A DNA stretch of 57,922 nt from Gemmatimonadota bacterium (lineage in GTDB: Bacteria; Gemmatimonadota; Gemmatimonadetes; Longimicrobiales; Gaopeijiaceae), in the NCBI GenBank assembly GCA_028873845.1, contig JAPPNO010000080.1, positions 1 through 57,922 on the forward strand, written 5' to 3'. This document shows positions 4,901 to 57,871 of the stretch, in pieces (the first letter of the stretch is position 1; the number at the start of each line of letters is the position of its first letter). Below the pieces are notes generated by a model, which saw only the letters and a program-made list of their open reading frames with translations, did no database searches and was not told where the DNA came from. Made by a program: the position numbers and the translations under genes.

Positions 4901-7124
4901 CGGAACTTCACAGATCGACCTCGACTGGACGGCGCCGGACTATGACGGCGGTGCGGACATCACGGGCTACCGGATCGAGGTGTCGACCGACCGCGGCAAC
5001 GTCTGGAAGGATCTGGTCGAGAACACCGAATCCACCGCCACCTCCTACGAGCACACCGGGCTGGCGCCCGCCTCGACGCGCCACTACCGCGTCTCGGCGG
5101 TCAACCGGGTCGGACCGGGCGATCCGTCGAATACCGCGGAGGCCACCACGGACGCCACGGTGCCGAACGCGCCGCTGGGACTCACGGCGACCGCCAAGGA
5201 CCATTCGCAGATCAACCTGGATTGGGATGCGCCGGGCTTCGACGGGGGCGCCGCGATCACCGGCTACCGGATCGAGGTGTCGGCGGACGCGGGGACGACG
5301 TGGACGAACCTGGTGGCCGACACGGATTCGACCGTGACCGAGTACTCGCACACCGGCCTCAACCCCGCCACCACCCGGCACTACCGGGTCTCGGCGATCA
5401 ACGAGATCGGGACGGGTGAACCGTCGAACGTGGCCGACGCGACCACCGACGCGATCGCGCCGAATCCGCCCACGAACCTCGAGGCGACGGCCAGCGCGCC
5501 GACGCGCATCGACCTGACCTGGTCGGCGCCGCTGTACGACGGGGGCGCCCCGGTGACGGGCTACCGGATCGAGGTCTCGGAGGACGGGATCGCGTGGACG
5601 GACCTGCAGCGCAATACGGGCGTGAGCCTCACGAACTACGCCCACGTCGGCCTGCAGCCGGGCAGCACACGGTTCTACCGCGTGTCGGCCATCAACGTGG
5701 CCGGCACCGGGCTGCCGTCGGGCGTCGCGAGCGCCTCCACCGATGATCCGAAGGAACGGGCCGGCCGCGTCAACGAGGCCATCCTGCCGCACTTCGCCGC
5801 GGCGGCCACCACGAGCACCCTGTCGGCGATCGCCGGACGGATCGAGACCGTGGCGTCGCGCAATCCCCTGCGGAGCCAGTTGAGTGCGGCGGGTCTCCTG
5901 TCGCAGGCCGGCAACATGGGGCTGCGCGGTTCGGGCGGCGGACTGAACATGGCCCGGCTCTTCGACGGGAAGTCGTTCGCCCTGCCTCTGGGCGGCGGCG
6001 GACCGCAGGAGAACGTTGCCACGCCGGTCGGCTTCACCACCTGGGGCAGCGCGGATTACATGAGCATGGGCGAGCCGAGCGGCGAAGATGTCGAGTGGGA
6101 AGGCAACATGCTCAGCATCCACCTCGGCGCCGACATACGGGTCCACCGCGATATCCTGGCCGGGATCGCCGGCTCCCGATCGACCGGAGACTACGAATTC
6201 ACCGACATGACCGGGGGTCGGGAGGTTGCGGGGGAATATAAAGCCAGGATGACCAGTCTGAACCCCTACGTCGCGTGGCTGCCCGGCCGCACGGGCGTGT
6301 CCGCGTGGGCGGCGGGAAGCTTCGGCTGGGGTGAGGTGACGGTCGACGATGAACCCGGAGGCGAGCGCGCGAGCGATACCCGCTCGAGGGGCGGGGCCGT
6401 CGGCGGCACCCGGATCATGATGACGAGGGGTGCCTCGGCGCTCCGTCTGCGCGCCGAGGGTTGGATGTCGCAGGTGGAGGTGGAGGGCAGCGAGGGTATG
6501 GACTCCCTGACGCTCGACATGCAGCGCCTGCGCGTTGCGCTGGAATGGTCGCAGGTTCACATGCTGCCGGGCGGGCGCGAGGTCAACTTCCTGGTGGAGG
6601 GCGGCCTGCGTTACGGCGACGGCGACGGCACGGAGGGCGCCGGCATGGAGGTCGGCGGCGGGCTCCGGTTCATCAGCGGGACGAGGGCGCTGACCGTCGA
6701 AGGGCACGGCAGAGTGCTGGCCACGGGCCCGGCCAACTACGAGGAATGGGGCTTCCGAGGACTGATACAGATCGATCCGCAGGCCGTGACCCGCGGGTTC
6801 TCGGTGAGGATCGCCCCGGCCTGGGGCCAGTCGGCGAGCGGAGTCCAGGAGCTGTGGGAGCGGGGCGTCGGCGACCGGTCCGATGCGGGCCAGGCGCTGC
6901 AGCGGGGCCGGGTGAACACGCGCGTCGAGTACGGTCTGGGCGACTTCGGCGGCACGCCCTACGGCCGCTTCTACGTGGCCGACGGCGGGGCCAGGGCCTT
7001 CGGGACCGGCATGCGGTACTCGGTCACGCGGGTCCTCGACCTTCGCTTCGAAGGTACGCGCACCGAGGGCGCCGCCGGTCCGGCCCGGCACGGACTCGCC
7101 ATGAGGGGGCGCTGGGTGTTCTGA
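1908..7124 (+). CDS. Giant secreted protein: Ig-like domains, ten fibronectin type III repeats, C-terminal autotransporter-like barrel
   Basis: The 1738-residue product starts at GTG 1908 with AGGAG about 8 nt upstream. It opens with a Sec signal peptide ending near AGAAGAEQ. Residues ~75-170 look like a bacterial Ig-like domain and ~172-290 like a SwmB-type domain (PTLTSAEVSRDTIWLTY). Ten FN3 domains of about 98 residues follow (~293-1280), each with the pattern PxPPTxLxATxxGxxQIxLxWxAP and a TRHYRVSAIN strand. Residues ~1330-1738 alternate like a beta-barrel and end in RGRWVF; a terminal Phe is typical of outer-membrane barrels. The architecture suggests the C-terminus anchors or exports the FN3 stalk, as in type V autotransporters. 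A role in adhesion or glycan binding is inference. It stands alone, with an intrinsic terminator after the stop. Confidence 0.85.
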   Translation: MRNLISFTVTALAVMCLVLLPAGAAGAEQPVPGDEPVARPTSGEVSSDRAEGSPDRRKVPPTVQITRRACSDSSRCHNNVGSDAPPDSIFMLVFAWSEKVTGFEKADLEDEGGQFAGDLVHANQSNSAATKDTFEISFVPRRDDDRRMVTITVPANVAMNGANESNRQAVQRFEVDTRRPTLTSAEVSRDTIWLTYHEALDENYEPVLADYVITAWSSVGDATPKTGFNGVVPMFVRINGDRVRLILAEATAEGDSVEVDYTPDAVPVRDAKGNFASALVDQKVTNLRQPLRTPPGRLTDLRATTGTTSITLSWSKPDTGTANITAYEVGVQSGEGEDYVGLRTALNADTTLTYTHSGLTADTTLRYRVRAVSPHGNAAWATVRATTGGTGSGTPGAPTGLTATAAGETAIRLSWTAPSDNGGSAITGYKIEVSNTGTSGWTVLTTVNATSHNHTGLSAGTTRFYRVFAINANGEGPASNTASATTTTASPPDPPRNLRATAANSSQINLTWDAPADNNGAAVTGYYIEVSDDAGSTWTDLVANTGSTATTYPHPGLNPNTTRHYRVSAINSAGTGNPSNVASATTPANRPGRPTLLTATAQGQNQINLKWQAPSDDGGSAITGYRIERSLQRTTGWTVVVANTNATDTEWEDRNLDPGSTRYYRVSAINSSGVGPVSNVATATTDARVPNAPTGLTAKQQGKTSILLRWKASSDDGGAPITGYEIEVTVHLDSMWTVLDTTAAAIPDYLHTGLAPGSTRYYRVSAINSAGKGPVSNVAGDTTPADPPGAPTNLMATANGPTQIDLSWTAPEDNGGADITAYRIWFSVTNGQTWSLLEGSTGSDATTWSDTGLEPATTRHYRVAAINRAGIGPQSDTASAMTDAIPPDPPTELIATKRGTSQIDLVWTPPVNTGGVPLKGYQIEVSADGGSQWEILEANTASLSAKYPHTGLDPASTRHYRVSAINTADLVSEASNVDSATTDATTPDPPTDLTAEADGTSQIDLDWTAPDYDGGADITGYRIEVSTDRGNVWKDLVENTESTATSYEHTGLAPASTRHYRVSAVNRVGPGDPSNTAEATTDATVPNAPLGLTATAKDHSQINLDWDAPGFDGGAAITGYRIEVSADAGTTWTNLVADTDSTVTEYSHTGLNPATTRHYRVSAINEIGTGEPSNVADATTDAIAPNPPTNLEATASAPTRIDLTWSAPLYDGGAPVTGYRIEVSEDGIAWTDLQRNTGVSLTNYAHVGLQPGSTRFYRVSAINVAGTGLPSGVASASTDDPKERAGRVNEAILPHFAAAATTSTLSAIAGRIETVASRNPLRSQLSAAGLLSQAGNMGLRGSGGGLNMARLFDGKSFALPLGGGGPQENVATPVGFTTWGSADYMSMGEPSGEDVEWEGNMLSIHLGADIRVHRDILAGIAGSRSTGDYEFTDMTGGREVAGEYKARMTSLNPYVAWLPGRTGVSAWAAGSFGWGEVTVDDEPGGERASDTRSRGGAVGGTRIMMTRGASALRLRAEGWMSQVEVEGSEGMDSLTLDMQRLRVALEWSQVHMLPGGREVNFLVEGGLRYGDGDGTEGAGMEVGGGLRFISGTRALTVEGHGRVLATGPANYEEWGFRGLIQIDPQAVTRGFSVRIAPAWGQSASGVQELWERGVGDRSDAGQALQRGRVNTRVEYGLGDFGGTPYGRFYVADGGARAFGTGMRYSVTRVLDLRFEGTRTEGAAGPARHGLAMRGRWVF
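2786..5745 (+). repeat. Ten tandem FN3-coding repeats, about 290-300 bp each
   Basis: The repeats begin near 2786, 3090, 3378, 3674, 3970, 4264, 4562, 4862, 5160 and 5457. Neighbouring units share DNA blocks coding for TRHYRVSAIN and GYRIEVS. The last four (from 4562) are the most alike, suggesting recent duplication or gene conversion. The first unit (~2786-3085) is the most divergent. Confidence 0.85.
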
Positions 7125-44820: not shown

Positions 44821-45882
44821 GTGACCGGCGCGGCGGACCCGCGCGGGAGCGGGCATCACGATACGGGGCAAAAGCGTGTCTTTCCCTCCGAAATCCGCAC
44901 CTGCGAGATGCACACGGGCGGTGAACCCGTGCGGATCGTCACATCCGGCTACCCGCGAATCCCCGGCGCCACCATCCTCGACAAGCGGCGCCACGCGCGC
45001 GAGCACCTCGACCACCTGCGCCGCTTCCTCATGCACGAGCCGCGCGGCCACGCCGACATGTATGGGGTCATTCCGGTCGAGCCGGACCATCCGGACGCGG
45101 ACCTGGCCGTGCTGTTCTGCCACAACGAGGGCTACTCGACGATGTGCGGCCACGCGACCATTGCAATGGCCAGATGGGCGGTCGACGAGAGCCTGGTCGC
45201 GGCCCGCGAGCCCCGCACCACCGTGCGCATACAGTGCCCGTGCGGACTTGTCACCGCGCACGTGCGGGTGAGGGACGGCCGCGCCGGGATGGTGCACTTC
45301 GAGAGCGTCGGCGCCTTCGCCCCGCTACTGGACGCGAAGGTGGAGGTGGAGGGCACGGGCACGATCGGGGTCGACATCGGCTACGGCGGCGCCTTCTACG
45401 CCTTCGCCCCCGCCGCGCGTTTCGGGCTCGACGTGCGCACATCGCCGGCGCGCACGCTGGTGGACGCGGCGTGGGCGGTCACCTGCGCGGCCAAGGCGCA
45501 GCTCGAACTGGACCACCCCGGGCACCCCGATCTGGCCTACCTCTACGGCACCATCCTCACCGATGGCACGCTGGGGACCGGCCGCCCCAGCGCAAACGTC
45601 TGCGTCTTCGCGGACCGCCAGGTGGACCGGAGCCCGACGGGGAGCGGGGTGACGGCCAGGATGGCCATCCAGAAGGCGCGGGGACAGGCGGGGGTGGGGG
45701 ACGAGCGGCGGTTCTCGAGTGTAACGGGGTCGGTGTTCACCGGTTGCATCGTGGAGGAGACGCGGGTGGGGGAGCACGAGGCCGTGACGGTGCTGGTCGG
45801 GGGGCGTGCGCACTACACGGGGGAGGCGTGTTTCCGGGTCGAGGAGGGGGATTCGCTGGGTGGGGGCTTCATGGTGCGATGA
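44821..45882 (+). CDS. Trans-3-hydroxy-L-proline dehydratase (proline racemase family)
   Basis: A 353-residue protein from GTG 44821 (weak ribosome site). It has the proline-racemase fold: EMHTGGEPVRIV, LCHNEGYSTMCGHATIAMARWAV with Cys109 in MCGH, and VDRSPTGSGVTARMAI. In true racemases the second motif has Cys (SPCGT); here it is Thr273, as in human L3HYPDH and bacterial trans-3-hydroxyproline dehydratases, which remove water from trans-3-hydroxy-L-proline to give pyrroline-2-carboxylate. The C-terminus (SSVTGSVFTG, HYTGEACFRVEEGDSL) also matches. No pyrroline-2-carboxylate reductase is visible nearby. The substrate occurs in collagen, suggesting an animal-derived nutrient. Confidence 0.9.
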   Translation: MTGAADPRGSGHHDTGQKRVFPSEIRTCEMHTGGEPVRIVTSGYPRIPGATILDKRRHAREHLDHLRRFLMHEPRGHADMYGVIPVEPDHPDADLAVLFCHNEGYSTMCGHATIAMARWAVDESLVAAREPRTTVRIQCPCGLVTAHVRVRDGRAGMVHFESVGAFAPLLDAKVEVEGTGTIGVDIGYGGAFYAFAPAARFGLDVRTSPARTLVDAAWAVTCAAKAQLELDHPGHPDLAYLYGTILTDGTLGTGRPSANVCVFADRQVDRSPTGSGVTARMAIQKARGQAGVGDERRFSSVTGSVFTGCIVEETRVGEHEAVTVLVGGRAHYTGEACFRVEEGDSLGGGFMVR

Positions 45883-45888
45883 GGTGGG

Positions 45889-45911
45889 GGCGGCGTTGGG
45901 GGGACGCCGCC
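45889..45911. terminator. Strong hairpin after the hydroxyproline dehydratase
   Basis: A perfect 8-bp GC stem, GGCGGCGT (45889-45896) with ACGCCGCC (45904-45911), and a 7-nt loop, just after the stop at 45882. It lacks a U-tract, so it is only a likely terminator. Confidence 0.45.
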
Positions 45912-45962
45912 GGGGACAACCGGGGATTGTGCGAAGAGCGTGCAGGGCGCCTATTGGGCCGC

Positions 45963-46859
45963 ATGAGCAGACGAGATGCAGGCATGGACAGGAAGCAGTT
46001 CCTGCGTGCGGCGGGGGCCGTGTGCGGGGCGGGGTGGCTGGCGGGGTGCGCGCGCGAGGGCGCCCCCGCGGCGGGAGAGTCAGCCGCCGAAGGCGACGGC
46101 AACGCATCGCAATCGCTCCTCGACGTGATCGGCCTCCAACTCTATACCGTCCGTTCCCTCATGGCGGAGGACGTGGCCGGCACCCTGGATGCGGTAGCGG
46201 CCGTTGGCTACGACGAAGTCGAATTCGCCGGCTACTTCGGCCACCCTCCCGGCGCGGTCCGCGGATGGCTCGACGCTGCCGGACTTTCTTCTCCCGCGGC
46301 GCACGTCGGGATGGAAGACCTCGCCGGGGCGGGACTGGACACCGCGATCGAGACCGCATCCATAGTGGGTCAACGATGGCTGGTCCTCCCCTGGATACCC
46401 CAGGACATGCGCACGCCCGACGGCTACCGCGCCCTCGCCGACATGCTCAACGCGGCCGGCGAGACCGCTGCGGCGGCCAACTTCAGAGTCGCCTACCACA
46501 ACCACGCCTTCGAGTTCGACACGCTGGACGACGCCGGCACCACCGGCTTCTCGCTCCTCCTCGAACACCTCGACCCCGCGCTGGCCGACCTGGAAATCGA
46601 CTTCCACTGGTCAGCGGTGGGAGGCGCGGACTCCGCCGCCCTGCTCCGGGACAACCCCGGGCGCTTCCCGCTATGTCATGTCAAGGACGTCACCGCCGAC
46701 GGGCGCATGGCGGATGTGGGCGCGGGCGAAATCGACTGGGCCGGACTCTTCGCCCTCTCGGGCACTGCGGGGCTCCGGCACTTCTTCGTCGAGCACGACC
46801 AGCCCGGCGATCCGCTCGCGTCCATCGAGGCGAGCTACCGTTACCTGTCCGGGACCTGA
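45963..46859 (+). CDS. Sugar phosphate isomerase/epimerase-type TIM barrel, exported
   Basis: A 298-residue protein from ATG 45963; ATG 45984 (MDRKQFLRAAG) is an equally good start. The leader has a twin-basic-like n-region and ends in WLAGC, a lipobox. The xylose-isomerase-like barrel is shown by GLQLYTVRS, AAVGYDEVEFAGYFG, YHNHAFEFD, LEIDFHWSAVGGAD, LCHVKDV and the final HFFVEHDQ, which carry the usual His, Glu and Asp metal ligands. Related periplasmic enzymes act on 3-keto sugars or epimerise ketoses. It begins a five-gene same-strand run (to 51444). Confidence 0.82.
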   Translation: MSRRDAGMDRKQFLRAAGAVCGAGWLAGCAREGAPAAGESAAEGDGNASQSLLDVIGLQLYTVRSLMAEDVAGTLDAVAAVGYDEVEFAGYFGHPPGAVRGWLDAAGLSSPAAHVGMEDLAGAGLDTAIETASIVGQRWLVLPWIPQDMRTPDGYRALADMLNAAGETAAAANFRVAYHNHAFEFDTLDDAGTTGFSLLLEHLDPALADLEIDFHWSAVGGADSAALLRDNPGRFPLCHVKDVTADGRMADVGAGEIDWAGLFALSGTAGLRHFFVEHDQPGDPLASIEASYRYLSGT

Positions 46860-46898
46860 ACCGGCGGGCCGGCACCACATCACTTCCAGGGAGGCAAG

Positions 46899-48392
46899 GT
46901 GAGCGAATCGACCATCGAAGGATCGGGTGGGGACCACGGCGCCGACGCGGGCCGTCTGTTTCTGGGCAGTTGCGTCGCGCTGATCGCCACTTCGGTGGCC
47001 TTCGCGACGATCGGCGCGGTGATGTTCGCGCTCAAGGGCGAGTTCGGCCTCAACAACGCCCAGGTCGGGTGGATCGGCGGGGCGGCGCTGTGGGGCTTCG
47101 CGGTGTCGCAGCTGGTCTTCGCGCCGCTCTGCGACACGCTGGGCATGCGCTTCCTGGTGAGGATGGCCTTCGTCGGGCACCTCGCCGGCGCGCTGATCAT
47201 GATCTTCGCGGGCGGCTTCGCGACCCTCTTCGCGGGCGCGCTGGTCATCTCCATGGCCAACGGACTGGTCGAAGCGGCGTGCAATCCCCTGGTGGCGGCC
47301 CTCTACCCGGACAACAAGACGGTCAAGCTCAACCAGTTCCACGTCTGGTTCCCGGGCGGAATCGTGCTCGGGGGACTGGCGGCCTACGGGCTCGACAGCG
47401 CCGGGATCACGTCGTGGCAGATCAAGGTGGCGCTGATCCTGATTCCGACCGTCGCCTACGGCATCCTGCTGCTGGGCCAGCGCTTCCCCGCGACCGAAGG
47501 GGTCCGCTCCGGCGTCTCCATGGGGGAGATGTTCCGCGCCACGCTGACCACGCCGCTCATGCTGCTCATGCTGCTGTGCATGGCCATGACCGCGTCGATC
47601 GAGCTGGGGCCGAACCGGTGGGTCCCCGCGGTGCTGGAAGCGGGGGGGATGGCGGGGATCCTGGTTCTCGTCTACGTCAACGGGATCATGGCGGTCATGC
47701 GCTACTGGGCGGGGCCGGTCGTGCATCGCCTGTCGCCCACGGGCATTCTGCTGGCGTCGGCGGTGATCTCAGGAGGCGGACTGTTGTGGCTCAGCTTCGG
47801 GGGATCGATGGCGTCGGTGCTGGCGTCGGCGACGGTCTTCGCGATCGGCGTGTGCTACTTCTGGCCGACGATGCTCGGCTTCGTGTCGGAGCGCGTCCCC
47901 AGGAGCGGGGCGCTGGGGCTGGGGCTGATGGGTACCGTCGGGATGGCCGTGGTCGGGCTGGTCACCTCTCCCTGGATGGGCGGGATCGCCGACCGGGTCA
48001 CTCACGAGGTGCTCGACAAGGACCGGGCCTACGTGGTGCTTGTGCAGGCGGCCGGTGCGCTCCAGTCGGAGTCGCTTCGCACGCCGGGTCCCGAGGGCGA
48101 CGAACTGAGGTCGGCGCTCGACCTGGTCACCGGGGTGCTCCCTCCGATCGGCGAGGATCCGATCCTCCCGGAGCTCGAGACCGCCAAGGCCATGCGCGCC
48201 TTCATCGAGTCGGGATCCACGTCGCCGGCGGTGAGTCAGGCGCAGGACCTTCTGGGCCCCGCCGAGAACCAGGGGGGACTGGTGTCCTTCCGGTACCTGG
48301 TGCCGCTGAGCGCGGTCCTGATGGCGATCTTCGGCCTGCTGTACCTGAGGGAGCGCCGTGAGGGCGGGTACCGGGCCGAGCGCCTGACCTGA
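46899..48392 (+). CDS. Major facilitator superfamily sugar-type transporter
   Basis: A 497-residue inner-membrane protein from GTG 46899 with AGGGAGG 6 nt upstream. Twelve membrane segments are visible; the loop after TM2 reads APLCDTLGMRFLVRMAF, and NQFHVWFPGGIVLGG and FWPTMLGFVSERVPRSGALGLGLMG match the FucP/glucose-galactose group. An extra ~100-residue polar segment (about 390-465, VLQSE...VLPPIGEDP...) is inserted before the last helix and may be a periplasmic loop. It lies between two TIM-barrel/oxidoreductase genes, so it probably imports the sugar they handle. Confidence 0.85.
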   Translation: MSESTIEGSGGDHGADAGRLFLGSCVALIATSVAFATIGAVMFALKGEFGLNNAQVGWIGGAALWGFAVSQLVFAPLCDTLGMRFLVRMAFVGHLAGALIMIFAGGFATLFAGALVISMANGLVEAACNPLVAALYPDNKTVKLNQFHVWFPGGIVLGGLAAYGLDSAGITSWQIKVALILIPTVAYGILLLGQRFPATEGVRSGVSMGEMFRATLTTPLMLLMLLCMAMTASIELGPNRWVPAVLEAGGMAGILVLVYVNGIMAVMRYWAGPVVHRLSPTGILLASAVISGGGLLWLSFGGSMASVLASATVFAIGVCYFWPTMLGFVSERVPRSGALGLGLMGTVGMAVVGLVTSPWMGGIADRVTHEVLDKDRAYVVLVQAAGALQSESLRTPGPEGDELRSALDLVTGVLPPIGEDPILPELETAKAMRAFIESGSTSPAVSQAQDLLGPAENQGGLVSFRYLVPLSAVLMAIFGLLYLRERREGGYRAERLT

Positions 48393-48480
48393 TCCGGACC
48401 ATGGGCAGGTTCCCTCCGGCAAGCGCGCGGCCATGCGCCCGCGGTGGCGGCTTCGTTCAGTCCGGCCGGCAGCCCGCGTA

Positions 48481-49653
48481 GTGAATCCTCTCATCGGCCG
48501 CCGGCTCCGGTACGGCATGGTCGGCGGCGGTCCCGGCGCCTTCATCGGCGGCGTGCACCGGATGGCGGCCGCCCTGGACGGCGAGTTCGAACTCGTCGCG
48601 GGTGCATTCGCGTCGCGGCCGGAACGCTCCCGGGAGCAGGGACGGGCGCTCGGGCTCGACGCGCGGCGCACCTACGGCACCTGGCGCGGGATGGCCGCGG
48701 CGGAGGCCGCGTTGGGCGAGGACCGGCGTATCGAAGCGGTATCGATCGTCACCCCCAACCACCTCCACCACCCCGTCGCGACGGCCTTTCTGAACGCGGG
48801 GATCCCCGTCATCTGCGACAAGCCGATGACCACCACCCTCGCCGACGCCCAGGCCCTTTGCGACACGGTGGAGCGCACCGGCCTCACCTTCGCCCTGACA
48901 CACAACTATACGGGCTATCCAATGGTCAGGGAGGCCCGCCACCTGGTCCGAACGGGGCGGCTGGGCACCGTGCGCAAGGTGGTGGCCGAATACCCGCAGG
49001 GCTGGCTGGCCACGCGGCTCGAGGAGACGGGCCACAAGCAGGCGGGCTGGCGGCAGGATCCGGACCAGGCGGGGGAATCCTCGGCCGTGGGCGACATCGG
49101 CACGCACGCGCACAACCTGGCGTGCTACGTGACCGGACTCGAGATCGACGCTGTCTTCGCCGACCTCTCGGCCCAGGTGCCCGGGAGGGTGATGGAGGAC
49201 GACGCGGGGGTGCTGGTGCGCTTTGCCGGCGGCGCGCGCGGTGTCATCATCGCGAGCCAGGTGTCGACGGGCGAGGAGAACGGCCTGGCGCTCAGGGTCT
49301 ACGGGGAGAGGGGGGGGCTCTCGTGGCGGCAGGAGCGGCCGGACGAACTGCACCTGCTCTTCCCGGACGCGCCGCGGCAGACACTCACGCGGGGAAGTCC
49401 GTGGCTGTCGGCGGCGGCCCGGCACGCGACGCGCCTGCCTCCGGGGCATCCGGAGGGATTCATCGAGGCGTTCGCCAACATCTACCGGGGCGCGGGAAGG
49501 GTGATCGGGGCGGCGCTGACCGGAAGGGAGACGGACCCGCTGGACCGGGATTTTCCCGATCACACAGACGGTGTCCGCGGGATGTGTTTCATCGAGAGCG
49601 TGCTCAAGTCGGATGCGCGGGAACGATGGGTGGCGATTGGGGGGGGCGCATGA
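48481..49653 (+). CDS. Gfo/Idh/MocA-family NAD(P)-dependent oxidoreductase
   Basis: A 390-residue enzyme; GTG 48481 is preferred because the Rossmann strand [15 protein letters not shown] then lies near the N-terminus, though ATG 48433 is possible and neither has a good Shine-Dalgarno. NAD(P)-binding GxGxxA-like [32 protein letters not shown], the conserved VICDKPM (EKP-type lysine) and [17 protein letters not shown] (active-site Asp/His) are all present. Such enzymes oxidise or reduce sugar hydroxyls, often at C3. It overlaps the next TIM-barrel gene by ATGA. Confidence 0.88.
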
Positions 49654-50654
49654 ACCGTCCCGTGACGCTCTTTACCGGACAGTGGGCGGACCTCCCCATC
49701 GAAGTCCTCGCGGAGAAGGCGGCCGGGTGGGGATACGACGGGCTGGAGCTCGCGTGCTGGGGGGACCATTTCGACGTGCAGGCGGCGCTCGCGGATCCGT
49801 CCTACTGCCAGGGCCGCCGGGACCTCCTCGCCCGGCACGGCCTCGGCGTCTGGGCGATCAGCAACCACCTGGTCGGGCAGGCCGTGTGCGACCGGATCGA
49901 CGACCGCCACCGCGCCATACTGCCGGCCCGGGTCTGGGGAGACGGCGATCCGGACGGGGTGCGCCGCCGCGCGGCCCGCGAGATGGCGGACACGGCGCGG
50001 GTGGCGGCGCGGCTGGGGGTGGAGGTGGTCAACGGCTTCACCGGCAGCCCGGTCTGGCACCTTCTCTACTCCTTTCCGCCGGTGCCGCCGGAGTGGATCG
50101 ACGAGGGGTTTCGCGACTTTGCCGCGGCATGGGCACCGGTCCTCGACGTGTTCGCGCACGAGGGCGTGCGCTTCGCGCTGGAGGTCCATCCCACCGAGAT
50201 CGCATTCGACATCGTCACCACGGAACGCGCCCTGGCCGCGCTGGACGGGCACGCCGCGTTCGGCTTCAACTACGATCCCAGTCACCTCGCGTACCAGGGC
50301 GTGGACTACGTCGAGTTCATCCGCAGGTTCGGAGGCCGGATCGCGCACGTGCACATGAAGGACGTATGGTGGTCCTCGCGCCCGGCGCAGGCGGGGGTCT
50401 TCGGTGGCCACACGGGATTCGGCGACGCGCGCCGCTTCTGGGATTTTCGCTCGCCGGGCCGCGGGCGTGTAGACTTCGAGGAGGTTGTCCGCGCGCTCAA
50501 CCGGAGCGGCTATGGCGGCCCGCTGTCGGTCGAGTGGGAGGACTCCGGCATGGACCGGGAGCACGGCGCGGCGGAGGCGAGCGGTTTCGTTCGCAGGTTG
50601 GCGTTTCCGCCATCGGATACCGCGTTCGACGCCGCGTTCGAAGACACGGAATGA
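49650..50654 (+). CDS. Sugar phosphate isomerase/epimerase-type TIM barrel, cytosolic
   Basis: A 334-residue protein whose ATG overlaps the oxidoreductase stop (ATGA). There is no signal peptide, unlike the exported paralog at 45963. Barrel motifs: [72 protein letters not shown] (Glu, His ligands), [13 protein letters not shown] (Asp, His), IAHVHMKDV and [12 protein letters not shown] (Glu). The full metal set suggests an active isomerase or lyase on a keto-sugar. Tight overlap with the Gfo/Idh/MocA gene points to sequential steps. Confidence 0.88.
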
Positions 50655-50685
50655 AACCGCTCCGAGGCGGGCGGCGAGAAGGGAG

Positions 50686-51444
50686 ATGACTACGATGCGT
50701 TCGATGATCGCGGCGGGGGTCGCGGCGCTGGCCTGTGCAGGTGGATGCCGTGGTGGCGGGGGCGCGGGGGACGGCGACGCCATGGAAACAGGTGCCGTGG
50801 AGGAGCGGGAGGCTCCGGTGAATCGGCTTGGCGCCGACGACGGGGAAGCCGGCTGGAGACTGCTCTCCGACGGTACCCTCGATGCGTGGCGCGGTTATCG
50901 GCGGCCGGATGTCCCCGGCGGGTGGTCGGCGACCGATGGCGGAATTGCCTTCACCCCGGGTGTGGAAAGCGGCAGCATCATAACCAGGGACCAGTTCACC
51001 GATTTCGAGCTCGCGTTCGAATGGCGGGTGGAAGAGCGCGGCAACAGCGGCGTCTTCTACAAGGTGACGGAGGCCGAGCGCGCCCCCTACTGGACCGGCC
51101 CCGAATACCAGGTTCTGGACAACGCCGGACACCCCGATGGCGGGCAGCCCGAGACTTCGGCCGGGGCCAACTACGGGCTCCACGCCCCGGCGGAGGATGT
51201 GGCCCGCCCCGCTGGAGATTGGAACCGGGGAAGGATCGTGGTCCGGGGCGCCCGTGTCGAGCACTGGATGAACGGCGTAAGGATCGTTGAATACGAGCTT
51301 TGGACGGACGAATGGCGGGCGCTGGTTGCGGAGACGAAGTTCGCTGAATGGCCGGGTTACGGAATGGCCGAAGGGGGGCATGTCGGGCTTCAGGACCACG
51401 GAGACCCGGTCTGGTACCGCAACGTCAGGATCAGAGAGTTGTGA
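50686..51444 (+). CDS. DUF1080 lipoprotein (3-keto-glycoside hydrolase type)
   Basis: A 252-residue protein; ATG 50686 or 50695 both follow GGGAG, and the second has better spacing. The signal ends in CAGGC, a lipobox. The concanavalin-like DUF1080 fold is shown by GWRLLSDGTLDAWRGYRRPD, FTDFELAFEWRVEERGNSGVFYKV, PEYQVLDNAGHPDG, NYGLHAP, GDWNRGRIVVRGARVEHWMNGVRIVEYE and GHVGLQDHGDPVWYRNVRIREL. Members cleave glycosides whose sugar is oxidised at C3. It closes the run of TIM barrel, MFS, oxidoreductase and TIM barrel genes, consistent with an oxidise-cleave-isomerise route. Confidence 0.88.
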   Translation: MTTMRSMIAAGVAALACAGGCRGGGGAGDGDAMETGAVEEREAPVNRLGADDGEAGWRLLSDGTLDAWRGYRRPDVPGGWSATDGGIAFTPGVESGSIITRDQFTDFELAFEWRVEERGNSGVFYKVTEAERAPYWTGPEYQVLDNAGHPDGGQPETSAGANYGLHAPAEDVARPAGDWNRGRIVVRGARVEHWMNGVRIVEYELWTDEWRALVAETKFAEWPGYGMAEGGHVGLQDHGDPVWYRNVRIREL

Positions 51445-51605: not shown

Positions 51606-53408
51606 ATGAGGAGGTTGGTTCCACGGATTTTCTGCGTCGCGGCGGCAATGGCCGTCGCCAATTGCGCCGATCTGGCCCTGACGCCCGATGTGGTCCCGCA
51701 CGACATGGAGATTCTCCCCCGGGACACGCTGATCACCGCGGGAGACGAGATTTCGCTGCGGGTCATCGTTTACGACGAGGACGGCAACATCATCGACGGG
51801 CCACCGTCGTGGGCACCCCCGAGATGGCATACGAACATCGAGGGCGCGATCGACATCAAGCGCAACGGGGACCTGATCGGGCTGAGGGGCAGCGCGGTGG
51901 CCGTTACAGGGCGCCTGGCGGATCTGGAGGCGTTTACGCGCCTGCGGATCAACCCGACTTCGGTGAACCTGTCCGTGCCGGTGATGTACTTCAACCAGGT
52001 GATCCAGAATCCGGACGGCACGGTGCCGATTCTGGCGGGGCGCGATGCACTCCTGAGGGTGTTCGCCGTCGGCCACGAAACCAGCTTCTACGAGCCGAGC
52101 GTGCGCGCCGACTTCTACCGGGACGGGGAAGTCATCCACACGGAACTGATGGAGCCGTTCTCGAGCCAGCTGCCCGACCACGTCGACGAGACCCGCATCG
52201 ATCGCTCCTACAACGCCGAGATCCCCGGCCACGTGCTGCAGCCCGGCGTGGAACTCGTGATCGTGCTGGACCCCGAGGGACTGGTGCCGCAGGGGTCGGC
52301 CAGCCAGGACCGGTTCCCCGCCGAGGGCACGATGGCACTGAACATCGTGTCCCTTCCCACCCATCGACAGACCATCGTCCCCACCATTCTCAACTGGGCA
52401 CCCGACGAACGCGTCTACAACTGGACCCGCGATGTCGACGGCGACAGCCGACACATGCAGGATCTCCGGGATTTCATGCCCATTGCGGACATCGACGTGA
52501 TCGCCCACGAGACCATGAACACCAGTGCCGACATTCGCAACATCAACGGCTGGGATCAGTGGATCCGGGAAGTGAGGGCCATGTGGGAGATGGAAGGACG
52601 GCAGGGGTATTACTACGGGGCCGTGCAACTTCCCTACCAGTACGGGATCATCGGCTATGGGTATGTCGGCAACATTCATGTGAGTGTGGGTGCGACCCGG
52701 TCCGACACGTTCGCCCACGAGGTGGGGCACAACATGAGCCTGTCTCATGCTCCGTGCGGAGTCAGCGGCGACCCCGATTTCCCGTACCACGACGGGGGCA
52801 GCGGCATGTGGGGATGGGACTTTGAGAGAGACCGCCTGGTGGATCCGGAAACGGTCAAGGACCTGATGAGCTACTGTGACCCGATCTGGGTGAGCGACTA
52901 CCACTTCAACAAGGCGCTGCAGTACCGGCTGCGAACGGAAGGGAATGCCCGTCCCCCCGTTCCCGAGCCGGAAACGACGCTGATGGTCTGGGGCAGTGCC
53001 AGCGACCGGAGCGTGCTGTTGGAGCCGGCCTTCCTCGTCGACGCGCCCCCGTCGCCGCCGGCCGCCGGGGGTCCCTACCGTCTGGAGGGGTTCGGCCCGG
53101 CCGGCGAGGTGCGTTTCGCCTTCGACTTCACCCCCGACCCGATGGAATTCGGTGGTGCCCAATTCCACTTCAACCTGCCCTACGACCCCGTCCGCGACGG
53201 TGCCCTGGAGCGGGTCGTGCTTTCGGGCCCTGGCGGCGAAGCCACCCTGAGTCCGATGAGCGCCCCTCCCATGGCAATCGTCAGGAACAGCGTTTCCGGT
53301 CAGATCCGGGCCTTCCTCCGGGACTGGGACGGAACGGTACCGGCGGCTGTAGAGGGCAGTACATTCGAGATCATGTTCAGCGATGGAATCCCAGGAGGTG
53401 TACGATGA
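51606..53408 (+). CDS. Metzincin-like zinc metalloprotease lipoprotein, copy 1
   Basis: A 600-residue protein from ATG 51606 with lipobox AVANC (Cys20). Residues ~30-115 form a Big_2-like Ig domain (PRDTLITAGDEISLRVIVYD ... TRLRINP). A middle beta-rich region (~120-300) follows. The zinc site is HEVGHNMSLSH with His371, Glu372, His375 and His381; the third His is followed by APC. Met421 in DLMSYCDPIWVSDYHF is the probable Met-turn. GYYYGAV precedes the site by ~25 residues. The C-terminal domain (~480-600) has GGPYRLEGFGPAGE and DGALERVVLSGPGGEATL. In the usual HExxHxxGxxH the Gly is Ser here. It is the first of an array; its stop overlaps the barrel gene (ATGA). Confidence 0.82.
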   Translation: MRRLVPRIFCVAAAMAVANCADLALTPDVVPHDMEILPRDTLITAGDEISLRVIVYDEDGNIIDGPPSWAPPRWHTNIEGAIDIKRNGDLIGLRGSAVAVTGRLADLEAFTRLRINPTSVNLSVPVMYFNQVIQNPDGTVPILAGRDALLRVFAVGHETSFYEPSVRADFYRDGEVIHTELMEPFSSQLPDHVDETRIDRSYNAEIPGHVLQPGVELVIVLDPEGLVPQGSASQDRFPAEGTMALNIVSLPTHRQTIVPTILNWAPDERVYNWTRDVDGDSRHMQDLRDFMPIADIDVIAHETMNTSADIRNINGWDQWIREVRAMWEMEGRQGYYYGAVQLPYQYGIIGYGYVGNIHVSVGATRSDTFAHEVGHNMSLSHAPCGVSGDPDFPYHDGGSGMWGWDFERDRLVDPETVKDLMSYCDPIWVSDYHFNKALQYRLRTEGNARPPVPEPETTLMVWGSASDRSVLLEPAFLVDAPPSPPAAGGPYRLEGFGPAGEVRFAFDFTPDPMEFGGAQFHFNLPYDPVRDGALERVVLSGPGGEATLSPMSAPPMAIVRNSVSGQIRAFLRDWDGTVPAAVEGSTFEIMFSDGIPGGVR

Positions 53409-53962
53409 AACGAAGGTTGATCCAGACCCTGATCCTCGCCGCGGCCTTCGCCCACGGGCCGGCTTCGGGCCAGATGCAGGCCGAGGTCCGCGGGGGCCTC
53501 ACGATCGGTAGCCATTCGGGCTCGTTTGCGGCGCTCGACATCGCGCCGTCCATATCCTTCGATGCGGTGGTGAGGCGGCAGATCCATGCGCGCTTTGCGG
53601 TGTTCGGCGGGTATGCACGCACGGCCTTCGGCTGCGAAGAGGGCTTCTGCAAGGACCAGGACCCGGGCATCACGATCGTGGGGAACCACGGCGTCCTGGG
53701 TGTCGAATGGGGAAGCGGCGGACCGTGGTTGCGGACCGGTGTTCTGGTCGGTACCACAGGGGCCGGTTCATTGGGAGACCCCCCCACCATCGGGATCGGG
53801 GTTCATGCCGCGGGGGGGCTTACCGTGGGGTCGGGCGGTTTTCGGTTCCTGCCGGGACTGTCGTGGCGCCGGATGCCGGCGACGTCGGAGTCCGATGACG
53901 ACTATGCCGTCGCGATGTCCCTGGATATCGGTTTCGCATATCAGTTGATGGGGGGAAACTAA
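53405..53962 (+). CDS. Small outer-membrane beta-barrel protein
   Basis: A 185-residue protein whose ATG overlaps the stop of metzincin copy 1 (ATGA). A signal peptide ends near PASGQM. The rest alternates in beta-strand fashion with Gly and aromatic residues: AEVRGGLTIGSHSGSF, AALDIAPSISFDAVV, ARFAVFGGYARTAF, GNHGVLGVEWGSGGPWLRTGVLVG, VHAAGGLTVGSGGFRFLPGLSWRR, AVAMSLDIGFAYQL. About eight strands fit a small OmpA-like barrel. Two Cys (CEEGFC) could form a loop disulfide. Co-translation with the protease suggests a surface partner, perhaps an anchor, substrate gate or transporter; that is inference. Confidence 0.72.
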   Translation: MKRRLIQTLILAAAFAHGPASGQMQAEVRGGLTIGSHSGSFAALDIAPSISFDAVVRRQIHARFAVFGGYARTAFGCEEGFCKDQDPGITIVGNHGVLGVEWGSGGPWLRTGVLVGTTGAGSLGDPPTIGIGVHAAGGLTVGSGGFRFLPGLSWRRMPATSESDDDYAVAMSLDIGFAYQLMGGN

Positions 53963-54242
53963 GTCCGGGCGGGCGCCCCGCGCACCCGGTGCGATGGCGC
54001 GCCGGGCGCGGCACAGACTACCCGGGCCGCAGGCGCCCGGTCGCCTTGACGTTGTGCAAGGTGGGCCGGGCGCTTCGCATGGGGGTTTCCGGCGCATCGG
54101 CCGATTGGAGCAAGCCTCCCGGCGCGGAGCCGGCGCGGAGCCGATTTGCCACAGGCCCATGTGGCGCTTACGATAACGGCGACGCAGCTGCTACTCGGTA
54201 GCGGTCCTGCCGGAGCGCGGACCGGACAAGGAGTCCGAGACG

Positions 54243-56042
54243 ATGAATGTGACGTTGCACAGGATCCTGTGGCCGTTTGGCCTGGTTGCCGTCGCGGGTT
54301 GTGGCGACCTGGCGCTGAACCCCGGCCAGAGACCCGCCAAACTCGAACTCACGCCCCAGGACACGCTGATGACCGCGGGCGATGCCGCCCGGTTGGAGAT
54401 CCTGGTCTTCGACAGGGACGACAATCCTCTGCCCGGGCCCCCGTCCTGGGCGCCGCCGACCTGGGAGTGGACGGACTCCGGCGCGGTGGAGATCACGACC
54501 GACGGGCGGCTGCAGACCCACACGGGAGGCGACCTGCGGGTCACGGCCCGCCTGGCCGGGTTGTCCACGTGGACAGGGCTCCGCATCAACCCGAGCAGCA
54601 TCGTGCTCACGGCGTCCTCGATCTACTTCAACCAGGTCATCCAGGAGCCGGAGGGGAGCGTTCCCCTCATAGCGGGGCGCCCGGCGTTTATGCGGATCTT
54701 CGCCACCGGCGACGAGGTCAGCTTCTACCAGCTGAGCGTGCGCGCGGAACTGTACCGGGACGGCGAAGTCGTGCAATCCGCCGTAATGCCCTCGCGATCG
54801 GATGTGCTCCTGAACGAAATCGATGAGAGCACGCTTGACCGGTCCTTCAACATGGAGATACCCGCGGAGCTGATTCATCCGGGTCTCGAGTTCGTCGTGG
54901 AACTGGACACGGAGAACACGGTCCCCAAGGCCCCGGGGAGTGTGACGCGCTATCCGGCCGACGGGGCCACGCCGCTCGACATCATCGAAATGCCCGTCTT
55001 CCAGCAGACGTTCGTGCCCACACTGCTCAACCGGAATCCCGATCACCGGGTGTTCAACTGGGTCAAGGACATCGGTCCGGACAGCGACCAGCTGGAGGTC
55101 ACCCGCACGCTCCTTCCCATCGGGGAGATGGAAGTCTTCGTGCACGACACCTTCTACACGGACGCGAATCTCACGACCGACAGCGGATGGCAGGAGTACC
55201 TTCGCGAGGTCCGGGCGGTCTGGAACATGGAAGGGAAGAAGGGCTACTACTACGGCGTCGTGATCGTACCGTCGGGATCCCCCTGGGGCGGCTACGGCTT
55301 CCTCGATGGCACGCATGTGAGCGTCGGTGCGCCGAACCCCGATACCTATGCCCACGAGGTCGGCCACAACATGACGCTTCGGCATGCTCCCTGCGGCGGC
55401 GCCGGCGGGCCCGATCCCAGATTCCCCTCGTCCCATGGCAGCATCGGAAGGTGGGGCTACGACTTCAAGAACAGCCGGCTGATCAGTCCGGGCCAGTACA
55501 AGGATCTCATGGGGTATTGCAGTCCGAACTGGGTCAGCGACTATCACTTCAAGAAGGCGATGGATCACCGGTTGGCGACCAACGAGACGCCGGTCGCGGC
55601 GGCGGCGGCGGAGCAGACACTCATGCTGTGGGGGAGTGCGAACAGCGACGAGGTGCTCCTGGAACCGGCCTTCCTGGTCGAGGCGGTGCCCGATGTGCCG
55701 GTGGGGGGCGGCGCGTGGCGGCTGACGGGGGTCGGGCCGGGCGGTGAGCGTCGCTTCGACTTCGGGTTCACGCCGAGCGCGGTCGATCACGGCGGTGCCA
55801 GCTTCATGTTCAACGTCCCCTACGACCCGGAGCGGGACGGGGCACTCGAGAGCGTGGTCCTGTCGGGTCCCGGCGGCGAAGCCACCCTGAGTCGGTCGGG
55901 CAAGCCGCCGATGGCGATCATTCGCAACCGCGCAAACGGGCAGGTGCGGGCGATCCTGCGCGATTGGGCGGGCGGCTTCACCCGCGTCGCCGGCGACGTC
56001 GAGATCATGGTCAGCGATGGTTTGCCGGGAGGTGGAAGCTGA
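54243..56042 (+). CDS. Metzincin-like zinc metalloprotease lipoprotein, copy 2
   Basis: A 599-residue paralog of copy 1 from ATG 54243 (AAGGAG 9 nt upstream). Lipobox VAGC (Cys20), Ig-like domain (PQDTLMTAGDAARLEILVFD ... GLRINP), zinc motif HEVGHNMTLRHAPC at His371, Glu372, His375, His381, the Met-turn KDLMGYCSPNWVSDYHFKKAM and the same C-terminal domain (DGALESVVLSGPGGEATLSRSG). The zinc motif starts at the same residue number as in copy 1, so the duplication kept length. The Gly position is Thr. A 280-nt gap without a gene separates it from the barrel gene; its own stop overlaps copy 3. Confidence 0.82.
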   Translation: MNVTLHRILWPFGLVAVAGCGDLALNPGQRPAKLELTPQDTLMTAGDAARLEILVFDRDDNPLPGPPSWAPPTWEWTDSGAVEITTDGRLQTHTGGDLRVTARLAGLSTWTGLRINPSSIVLTASSIYFNQVIQEPEGSVPLIAGRPAFMRIFATGDEVSFYQLSVRAELYRDGEVVQSAVMPSRSDVLLNEIDESTLDRSFNMEIPAELIHPGLEFVVELDTENTVPKAPGSVTRYPADGATPLDIIEMPVFQQTFVPTLLNRNPDHRVFNWVKDIGPDSDQLEVTRTLLPIGEMEVFVHDTFYTDANLTTDSGWQEYLREVRAVWNMEGKKGYYYGVVIVPSGSPWGGYGFLDGTHVSVGAPNPDTYAHEVGHNMTLRHAPCGGAGGPDPRFPSSHGSIGRWGYDFKNSRLISPGQYKDLMGYCSPNWVSDYHFKKAMDHRLATNETPVAAAAAEQTLMLWGSANSDEVLLEPAFLVEAVPDVPVGGGAWRLTGVGPGGERRFDFGFTPSAVDHGGASFMFNVPYDPERDGALESVVLSGPGGEATLSRSGKPPMAIIRNRANGQVRAILRDWAGGFTRVAGDVEIMVSDGLPGGGS

Positions 56043-57871
56043 ACGCTCGGCGGCGGGTTGTCCGCGGCCTGTCCGGAACGCTGTTTGTGGTTCTGGCGTT
56101 GGCCTCCGGCGCGTGCAGCGACCTCGCGCTCAAGCCGGACCGCATTCCCTCGTTTCTGGTGATCTCGCCCGCGGATACGCTTTTGCGCGTGGGGGACACC
56201 GTTCAGTACCGGATGACGGTCCTGGACCAGGACAGCGTGGTGATGGACGACGTTCCCGATTGGGTCCAGCCGCTGTGGACCACCCGGATACCCTGGGCCG
56301 TGTACATGACGGAGGACGGGCGGGCGGAGGCCGCCGTTCACACCGAGACGGAGGTACGCGTCTCATTCGCCGGCGTGAAGGCACGGACCCGTCTCAGGGT
56401 CAATCCGGATGAGCTTACGGTCACGGCGGCCGCGTACACATTGACACAGGGTGTCCAGAACGAGGAGGGCAGCGTGCCGCTCATTGCGGGCCGGGCCGCC
56501 TTCCTCCGGGTGTTCGTTACCGGTGACATGCCCAGCTTCTACCAGCCGCGCGTGAGAGCGTCGTTCTACCATGGTGGCCGGCTGGCACATCGAGTGGAGA
56601 TGACCCTGGATTGGGACCGGCTGCCGACCGGAGTGGAGGAGGGTCGCCTGGACCGGTCGTTCAATGCCCGGATTCCGGGAGGCGCCATCAACCCCGGCAC
56701 CACGATGGTGATCGAGGTGGACCCGGAAGGGGTGATCCCGCACACGACCGAGAGCCGTTTGAGAGTGCCTGCGCAGGGAAGCATCGCACTCGATGTGCGC
56801 AGGCTGAACCGCCTGGACCTCACCGTGGTGCCGGTCGTGGTCGCGTCGGATACGGTGTCGGACCAGCTTGCCTTCGACTGGGCGGAGGAGCTGGCGGCCG
56901 GTGGCGATGACCTGCGGCTGACCCGCTCCGTGCTCCCCATCGGAAGCATGGCCGTGCGGGTCCACGAAGGCGTGGTGACGAACGCGGATCTGACCACGGG
57001 GATCGGATGGGGCGATCTCCTGGAAGAGATCACGCTGCTGCGCGTCAGCGAGGGGTCGCAGGGTTACTACTACGGGGCGGTCGCGCCCATCCCGGGTAGC
57101 CGGTGGAGCGGCCTGGCCGTCGTCGCGTTTCCGGTGGCGGTGGGTATCGCGTCCGGGGGGACGCTCGCGCACGAGCTGGGCCACAATCAGGGCCTTCAAC
57201 ATGCGCCCTGCGGGGGGACGGGGGGGGCGGACGAGGACTACCCGTACGAGGGCGGAGTCACGGGAGTGTGGGGCTATGACATGCACGCCGACCGTCTGGT
57301 GAACCCGTTTCTCTACAAGGACGTGATGGGGTATTGCACGCCCAACTGGGTCAGCGACTACCACTTCAAGCGAGCCATGGGCTTTCGCGAAACCCGGGAG
57401 AGCGGGTTGGTCGGACCACCGCCCGCGGCCGCGGCAGGGGTCGGCACGGGCCGGACATTGCTGCTTTGGGGCAGCACGGGTGACCTGGGACTGGAGCTGG
57501 AGCCCGCCTTCCTGACCGACCTCCCCGTCACGCTCCCGGAAGCCGGGGGACCCTATCGCCTGGAAGGTCTGGGACCGGCCGGGCAGCGCCGTTTCTCGTT
57601 CAGCTTCGCCCCCCGTGAAACCGAGTTCGGCGGCGGGAGCTTCCTCTTCGCGGTGCCCTATGAACCCTCACGGGACGGGGAGCTGGAGCGGGTTGTGCTC
57701 TCCGGGCCGGAAGGGTTCTTCGCCCTGGAGCATTTCGGCACGCCGCCGATGGCCATGATCACCGACCGAAAGACCGGACGGGTGCGCGGGGTGCTGCGCG
57801 ATTGGAGCGGCGGCTACGATTTCGTCGATGGCGACATCGACATCGTGATCAGCGAGGGCCTGCCGCACTGA
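56039..57871 (+). CDS. Metzincin-like zinc metalloprotease lipoprotein, copy 3, probable CTG start
   Basis: A 610-residue paralog. No ATG, GTG or TTG lies at a sensible place: the only usable start that preserves the Arg-rich leader (NARRRVVRGLSGTLFVVLALASGAC, read in two parts) is CTG 56039, which overlaps the preceding stop as CTGA behind GGGAGGTGG. The lipobox Cys is residue 26. The zinc site is HELGHNQGLQHAPC (His378, Glu379, His382, His388) and, unlike the other copies, keeps the metzincin Gly. The Met-turn is KDVMGYCTPNWVSDYHFKRAM. The C-terminal domain is conserved (GGPYRLEGLGPAGQ, DGELERVVLSGPEG). It ends one base before a convergent tRNA gene. Confidence 0.78.
   Translation: MNARRRVVRGLSGTLFVVLALASGACSDLALKPDRIPSFLVISPADTLLRVGDTVQYRMTVLDQDSVVMDDVPDWVQPLWTTRIPWAVYMTEDGRAEAAVHTETEVRVSFAGVKARTRLRVNPDELTVTAAAYTLTQGVQNEEGSVPLIAGRAAFLRVFVTGDMPSFYQPRVRASFYHGGRLAHRVEMTLDWDRLPTGVEEGRLDRSFNARIPGGAINPGTTMVIEVDPEGVIPHTTESRLRVPAQGSIALDVRRLNRLDLTVVPVVVASDTVSDQLAFDWAEELAAGGDDLRLTRSVLPIGSMAVRVHEGVVTNADLTTGIGWGDLLEEITLLRVSEGSQGYYYGAVAPIPGSRWSGLAVVAFPVAVGIASGGTLAHELGHNQGLQHAPCGGTGGADEDYPYEGGVTGVWGYDMHADRLVNPFLYKDVMGYCTPNWVSDYHFKRAMGFRETRESGLVGPPPAAAAGVGTGRTLLLWGSTGDLGLELEPAFLTDLPVTLPEAGGPYRLEGLGPAGQRRFSFSFAPRETEFGGGSFLFAVPYEPSRDGELERVVLSGPEGFFALEHFGTPPMAMITDRKTGRVRGVLRDWSGGYDFVDGDIDIVISEGLPH

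What the first reader, a model, noticed from the sequence alone, without database searches (positions are those of the whole stretch)
51606..57871. Tandem array of three metzincin-like lipoproteases with a co-translated outer-membrane barrel
Seen: three ~600-aa paralogs share lipobox, Ig-like domain, HExxHxxxxxHAPC zinc motif, Met-turn (MxYCxPxWVSDYHF) and a C-terminal domain ending in a DGxLExVVLSGP block. A 185-aa barrel protein overlaps the first gene by ATGA, and copies 2 and 3 overlap by CTGA. Known: metzincins use HExxHxxGxxH plus a Met-turn. Inferred: a surface proteolytic system, possibly of M66-like ancestry, with a dedicated barrel partner. This specific arrangement is not one I recognise.
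Basis: partly seen in the sequence, partly recalled or inferred. Interest (0 to 1): 0.72.

Follow-up and report, generated by a model that had tools for sequence, protein, structure and literature searches.

The report
Sponge symbionts' expanded surface protease family
Three neighbouring genes encode zinc proteases made together with a small outer-membrane barrel, and they belong to a family that has grown to about 27 copies in this relative of sponge symbionts, many carrying leucine-rich-repeat arms, which may be tools for acting on proteins of the host tissue.

Summary
The window carries three 599-610-aa paralogs (42-52% identical to copy 1) with a lipobox, an Ig-like domain, an HExxHxxxxxHAPC zinc site and a Met-turn, plus a 185-aa barrel. 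They are M66 (StcE-type) metzincins: Pfam M66 above cut-off, StcE the best PDB fold match. The barrel has an 8-stranded OmpA-type fold. The pair is real: the barrel is found in 22 of 23 genomes of the genus, beside a same-strand protease in all 21 other loci read (one only a remnant), and in several other genera, usually with an ATGA or GTGA overlap. The third protease starts at CTG in a CTGA overlap, conserved in 14 genomes.

The trio is part of something larger. The genome holds about 27 family loci (3 degenerate); all 23 genomes of the genus hold 8-28. Most of the rest form a second clade fused to Big_2 and LRR arrays. Such LRR-M66 proteins also occur in Latescibacterota (12 of 16 genomes), Acidobacteriota, Bacteroidota and one gammaproteobacterium. 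LRR number changes between orthologs while cores are nearly indel-free; a few copies lost zinc ligands.

Best reading: membrane-anchored proteases, many with swappable recognition arms, acting on host or community glycoproteins. Activity, substrate and surface exposure are untested.

The parts
51606..53408 (+). Protease 1 (P0001): lipoprotein signal, Ig-like (Big_2-type) domain ~28-118, beta-sandwich ~120-250, metzincin domain ~250-447, C-terminal beta domain ~455-597
51663..51665 (+). lipobox cysteine of protease 1 (VANC, then ADLAL)
52716..52748 (+). zinc site HEVGHNMSLSH of protease 1 (residues 371-381); Met-turn Met codon at 52866
53394..53408 (+). GGAGG Shine-Dalgarno-like stretch followed by the ATGA stop/start overlap, protease 1 to barrel
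53405..53962 (+). Barrel (P0002): signal peptide plus predicted 8-stranded OmpA/NspA-type beta-barrel with conserved FGCEEGFC loop cysteines
54243..56042 (+). Protease 2 (P0003), lipobox Cys codon 54300-54302, zinc site 55353-55385
56028..56042 (+). GGAGG followed by CTGA overlap: non-canonical CTG start of protease 3, conserved in 14 genomes
56039..57871 (+). Protease 3 (P0004), lipobox Cys codon 56114-56116, zinc site HELGHNQGLQH 57170-57202

Best explanation
The three window genes are M66 (StcE-type) zinc metalloproteases predicted to be lipid-anchored in the cell envelope. They sit in one gene block, with stop/start overlaps, together with an 8-stranded OmpA-type barrel that most likely docks or displays the protease at the outer membrane. 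This protease-barrel pair looks ancestral. In sponge-associated Gemmatimonadota the protease then multiplied into a large family, most of whose members carry Ig (Big_2) stalks and long leucine-rich-repeat arms and have no barrel. The repeats would choose the target, by analogy with other LRR recognition arms, and the metzincin domain would cut it; a few members lost zinc ligands and would only bind. Likely targets are glycoproteins of the host matrix or mucus, or of other community members. Shown here: family, fold, gene overlap and its conservation, copy numbers, domain fusions, repeat-number turnover, presence in other phyla. Inferred: lipid anchoring, surface exposure, a physical protease-barrel complex, proteolytic activity, and the substrate class.
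For: M66: sequence; StcE 3ujz, Foldseek E 5.4e-13; VIA Z 11.8 over 339 residues, rmsd 7.5; catalytic part 247-447 like adamalysin/ADAM, Z about 12. Barrel: (OmpA Z 17-18, NspA 16.6). Pair conservation; other genera have the same order with ATGA or GTGA overlaps. Overlapping pairs are translationally coupled and often encode subunits of complexes (PMC6728339, PMC10666635, abstracts). Expansion: 27 loci; 8-28 per genome in 23 of 23 congeners. LRR/Big_2 fusion. Two clades, with other phyla nested in the LRR clade. Zinc ligands kept in 90 of 96 cores, Met and the Met-turn Cys almost everywhere. Repeat turnover: (C92a against L199: core 85% identical with no gap, arms of 306 and 450 aa). Host context: RHO/COS and jk18 bins come from sponge studies, and LRR proteins are enriched in sponge symbionts.
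Against: No activity, localisation or interaction data. About 38 of 88 complete ORFs lack a clear lipobox by a strict pattern, partly through uncertain starts. Barrel linkage is confined to the Ig-type branch; genus g12 has many copies and no barrel, so the barrel is not needed by most of the family. Three genomes have a barrel with no protease 1 upstream and a fourth keeps only an 83-aa remnant there. Profile search of PDB sequences finds snake-venom metzincins, not StcE, so the StcE link at sequence level rests on Pfam.
Confidence: 0.6

Rival explanations
1. Nutritional degradation: the proteases are ordinary scavenging enzymes that release peptides from sponge mesohyl or particulate protein, copy number reflects diet, and the LRR and Ig parts are only spacers.
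For: Intact catalytic sites in most copies. The window is rich in catabolic genes: M20 and S58 peptidases, proline racemase, MFS, Gfo/Idh, 3-keto-disaccharide hydrolase.
Against: Zinc-site losses shared by two orthologous pairs and repeat-number turnover confined to the arms are not expected of plain digestive enzymes.
Confidence: 0.25
2. Self-processing or envelope maintenance: the Ig-type protease and barrel are an intrinsic envelope pair that trims the cell's own surface proteins, and the LRR copies are a separate later use of the core.
For: The pair occurs with a single protease in several other genera of the family, and a divergent form in low copy number is widespread in the phylum (161 of 395 genomes).
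Against: Does not explain the multiplication to 8-28 copies in one genus or the occurrence in other phyla.
Confidence: 0.25
3. Antagonism or defence: the proteins act on phages, competing bacteria or predators, and the LRR arms diversify to recognise them.
For: Large modular families with repeat turnover are typical of conflict genes (general knowledge); no direct evidence here.
Against: No such evidence was found, but neighbourhoods were not examined for immunity or mobile genes; the M66 precedent (StcE) acts on host glycoproteins (general knowledge).
Confidence: 0.1

Closest known systems
Peptidase family M66 (StcE-type zinc metalloproteases)
   Same: Pfam M66 hit above cut-off, HExGHN zinc motif, best PDB fold match covering the domain before the catalytic core, the core and part of the C-terminal domain
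   Different: Lipobox, N-terminal Big_2-type Ig domain, conserved HAPC and MSYC cysteines, WVSDYHF after the Met-turn, a barrel partner, LRR fusions in paralogs, very high copy number
OmpA/NspA/Ail-type 8-stranded outer membrane barrels
   Same: Eight-strand barrel fold (OmpA Z 17-18)
   Different: No second (OmpA C-terminal) domain, no Pfam match for P0002 itself, and beside an M66-like protease in nearly every locus read
Eukaryote-like repeat (LRR) proteins of sponge symbionts
   Same: Long LRR arrays in sponge-associated bacteria of several phyla
   Different: Here about 17 of 29 LRR-bearing frames of the genome belong to a protease gene (three of them degenerate), which gives them a catalytic role and a possible route to the cell surface without an injection machine

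Membership tests
Peptidase M66 | Match to the curated M66 profile above its gathering score | tested here: met
   37.6, 24.7, 37.0 bits against 20.6 for the three window proteases; 47 of 49 members at E 0.01 or better; several LRR-type copies fall just under the cut-off
Peptidase M66 | Metzincin motif HExxHxxGxxH with three His ligands, and a Met-turn | tested here: inconclusive
   Three His and Glu in 90 of 96 cores and Met in 95 of 96, but Gly in only 16 of 96 (Ser 44, Asn 21)
Peptidase M66 | Fold of StcE | tested here: met
   overall rmsd is large, so the domains match better than their arrangement
Peptidase M66 | Cleavage of O-glycosylated proteins | not testable with these tools
   needs biochemistry
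OmpA-type 8-stranded barrel | Eight antiparallel transmembrane strands with signal peptide | tested here: met
   model pLDDT 78, pTM 0.72; signal peptide judged by eye
OmpA-type 8-stranded barrel | Sequence match to a curated outer-membrane barrel family | tested here: inconclusive
   5 of 13 orthologs match OMP_b-brl weakly (best E 2.2e-4), P0002 itself none
Bacterial lipoprotein | Signal peptide with lipobox cysteine | tested here: met
   All three window proteases by eye; strict pattern in 50 of 88 complete family ORFs
Surface-exposed lipoprotein | Display on the outer face of the outer membrane | not testable with these tools
   needs protease shaving or labelling

The most novel reading that the evidence does not exclude
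A horizontally shared arsenal of LRR-guided M66 proteases is a common symbiosis tool of sponge-associated bacteria of several phyla: LRR arms diversify by repeat gain and loss to choose host or community glycoproteins, a metzincin core cuts them, zinc-dead members act as receptors or decoys, and a co-translated OmpA-type barrel serves the founder branch. It would explain how many LRR proteins of sponge symbionts are deployed without injection machines.
Probability: 0.35. Interest if true: 0.85.

Novelty: new variant of a known kind. Interest (0 to 1): 0.62.

Why it matters
Leucine-rich-repeat proteins are reported as enriched in sponge symbionts, but how they act is open, and Robbins et al. 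2021 noted that few of these lineages have the secretion systems to deliver them (PMC8163846). Here a large share of the LRR proteins in one genome are arms of putative membrane-anchored proteases. That turns an open question into testable ones: are these active enzymes, what do they cut, and does the arm decide. The conserved protease-barrel pair also gives a defined candidate complex, and the conserved CTG start is a clean case of non-canonical initiation in a stop/start overlap.

Tried and rejected
Alignment A2 was too diverse for the genome-contig scan, so A3 was used; that scan rests on one peptide pattern, W[IV]SDYHF[TKN]. Transfer to Gammaproteobacteria through RHO2_bin_50 (31 copies) was rejected: its rpoB is identical to that of G033, a genome of the window's own family, so the record title is wrong. 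Misbinning as the whole explanation for other phyla was rejected for Latescibacterota: 12 of 16 genomes have copies, some on contigs over 1.5-2 Mb; it is not excluded for the smaller Acidobacteriota and Bacteroidota contigs. 'All LRR proteins are fused to proteases' was rejected: 12 of 29 LRR_8 frames in the genome are not (counted by hand). A barrel paralog elsewhere in the genome was sought and not found. The G060 rpoB row in the tree is a wrong frame and is ignored. No literature on LRR-M66 proteins, or on StcE-like proteases in sponges, was found in the open-access library searched.

Full report
What is there. The end of contig C6 (the window is the whole contig) carries protease 1 (51606-53408), a barrel (53405-53962), protease 2 (54243-56042) and protease 3 (56039-57871), all on the + strand. 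Proteases 2 and 3 are 52% and 42% identical to copy 1 and share a lipobox Cys, an Ig-like domain, HExGHNxxLxHAPCG, MxYCxPxWVSDYHF and a C-terminal beta domain. Only copy 3 has the textbook glycine of HExxHxxGxxH.

Family. Pfam M66 is above its gathering score in all three, and 47 of 49 aligned relatives match it. The AlphaFold2 model of copy 1 has mean pLDDT 90.3 and pTM 0.85. Foldseek's best PDB match is StcE, an M66 enzyme (E 5.4e-13); VIA-align gives Z 11.8 over 339 residues, rmsd 7.5, spanning model residues 122-549. The catalytic part, about 247-447, resembles adamalysins and ADAMs (Z about 12), and residues 28-118 match Big_2-type Ig domains. A profile search of PDB sequences found snake-venom metzincins weakly and not StcE, so this is a distant branch of M66.

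Barrel. P0002 has a signal peptide and a predicted eight-stranded barrel (pLDDT 78) like OmpA (Z 17-18) and NspA (16.6). It has no paralog in the genome. Orthologs are in 22 of 23 genomes of the genus. In the 21 other loci read, the barrel lies beside a same-strand protease in every one, most often in the order protease-barrel-protease; in one (G021) the only neighbour is an 83-aa remnant, and three (G007, G013, G011) lack the upstream copy. The same pair occurs in other genera of the family, where the locus often holds a single protease; one weaker barrel hit on a short contig (L284) had no protease beside it. Of 34 protease-to-barrel junctions (three loci counted twice), 26 have an ATGA and 4 a GTGA overlap. 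Such overlaps couple translation and are common between subunits of complexes (PMC6728339, PMC10666635).

The CTG start. Protease 3 starts at the CTG of a CTGA overlap. The same CTGA junction leads into the downstream protease in 14 genomes of the genus including the window, whether the upstream gene is a protease or the barrel, mostly with GGAGG close upstream. In L115, L116 and L117 there is no in-frame ATG, GTG or TTG between the preceding in-frame stop and the signal peptide; in others the nearest lies some 25 or more codons upstream, inside the previous gene.

Expansion. A search of the own genome finds 27 family loci, three of them with internal stops. All 23 genomes of the genus have 8-28 matches, with a scoring limit of 26 candidates that makes some counts lower bounds; genus g12 (G033) has 21 and g9 (G030) 10, while the other genera searched have 0-3. 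A divergent form in low copy number is spread over the phylum (161 of 395 genomes at E 1e-30; that search scored only four candidates per genome).

LRR arms. Full-length paralogs carry Big_2 domains and LRR arrays before the M66 core, up to 2233 aa. A tree of 110 cores separates an Ig-type branch, holding the window trio and the barrel-linked genes of other genera, from an LRR-type branch of 70 rows (quick method, SH-aLRT 92 and 89). In the own genome 17 of 29 frames with LRR_8 matches belong to these genes (counted by hand). Between orthologs the core is nearly free of indels while the arms differ: C92a and its ortholog L199 have cores 85% identical with no gap and arms of 306 and 450 aa, a difference of 144 residues, or six 24-residue repeats. 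Arm lengths depend on start calls, so the largest differences in that table are not used. Zinc ligands are intact in 90 of 96 cores; two losses (C92b with L173, C31 with L198) are shared by orthologs in two species, which suggests retained binding-only proteins.

Other phyla. Relatives of the LRR branch occur in genomes whose rpoB lies outside Gemmatimonadota: Latescibacterota, Acidobacteriota, one Bacteroidota and one gammaproteobacterium. They nest inside the LRR branch and carry LRR matches, weakly and with many Ig domains in the Bacteroidota copies. Latescibacterota are the firm case: 12 of 16 genomes with 2-6 copies, on contigs up to more than 2 Mb. Transfer is the likeliest reading, not proven; direction is not resolved. 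Many named records come from sponge studies: the RHO, COS and APA prefixes fit the host list of Robbins 2021 and the jk18 bins are named in Kelly 2022. The remaining host attributions, and the link of prefixes to hosts, rest on my knowledge of the bin names. The host of the window's own genome is not known.

How it probably works. Signal and lipobox put the enzyme in the envelope; the Ig stalk holds it off the membrane; the barrel, made in step with it, docks or displays it (inferred). In the LRR-type copies the arm would select the target and the core would cut it. The M66 precedent (StcE) points to O-glycosylated proteins; the substrate here is unknown. Robbins et al. found LRR proteins enriched in sponge symbionts and doubted delivery by traditional secretion pathways; membrane-anchored LRR proteases would be another route.

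Limits. Most genomes are MAGs and copies can be split at contig ends. The lipobox pattern was clear in 50 of 88 complete ORFs. Nothing here tests activity, location, complex formation or substrate.

Noticed in passing
window 56028-56042; L115-L124, L126, L127, L133: Conserved CTG start codon inside a CTGA overlap for the downstream protease, with GGAGG upstream encoded by the last codons of the previous gene; no ATG/GTG/TTG alternative in several genomes.
   Followed up: yes
L047 (C92:5475-7013), L054 (C31:43287-44519), L173, L198, L172, L187: Family members with broken zinc ligands, two of the cases shared by orthologs in two species.
   Followed up: partly
RHO2_bin_50 records, loci L170, L182, L192: Titled Gammaproteobacteria but rpoB is identical to that of a Gemmatimonadota genome (G033); the title looks wrong.
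   Followed up: yes
window 44821-51444: Catabolic genes upstream: proline racemase, MFS transporter, Gfo/Idh/MocA oxidoreductase, 3-keto-disaccharide hydrolase.
   Followed up: no
window 1908-7124: 1738-aa frame with about ten fibronectin type III domains and possible F5/8 type C domains.
   Followed up: no
L114 (G021) 6834-7082: 83-aa remnant, 93% identical to the end of protease 1, still overlapping the barrel start by ATGA: recent loss of copy 1 in a one-contig genome.
   Followed up: partly
G000:C66, C46, C59, C47: Several large LRR frames (1097-1817 aa) in the own genome that are not fused to the protease; not identified.
   Followed up: no
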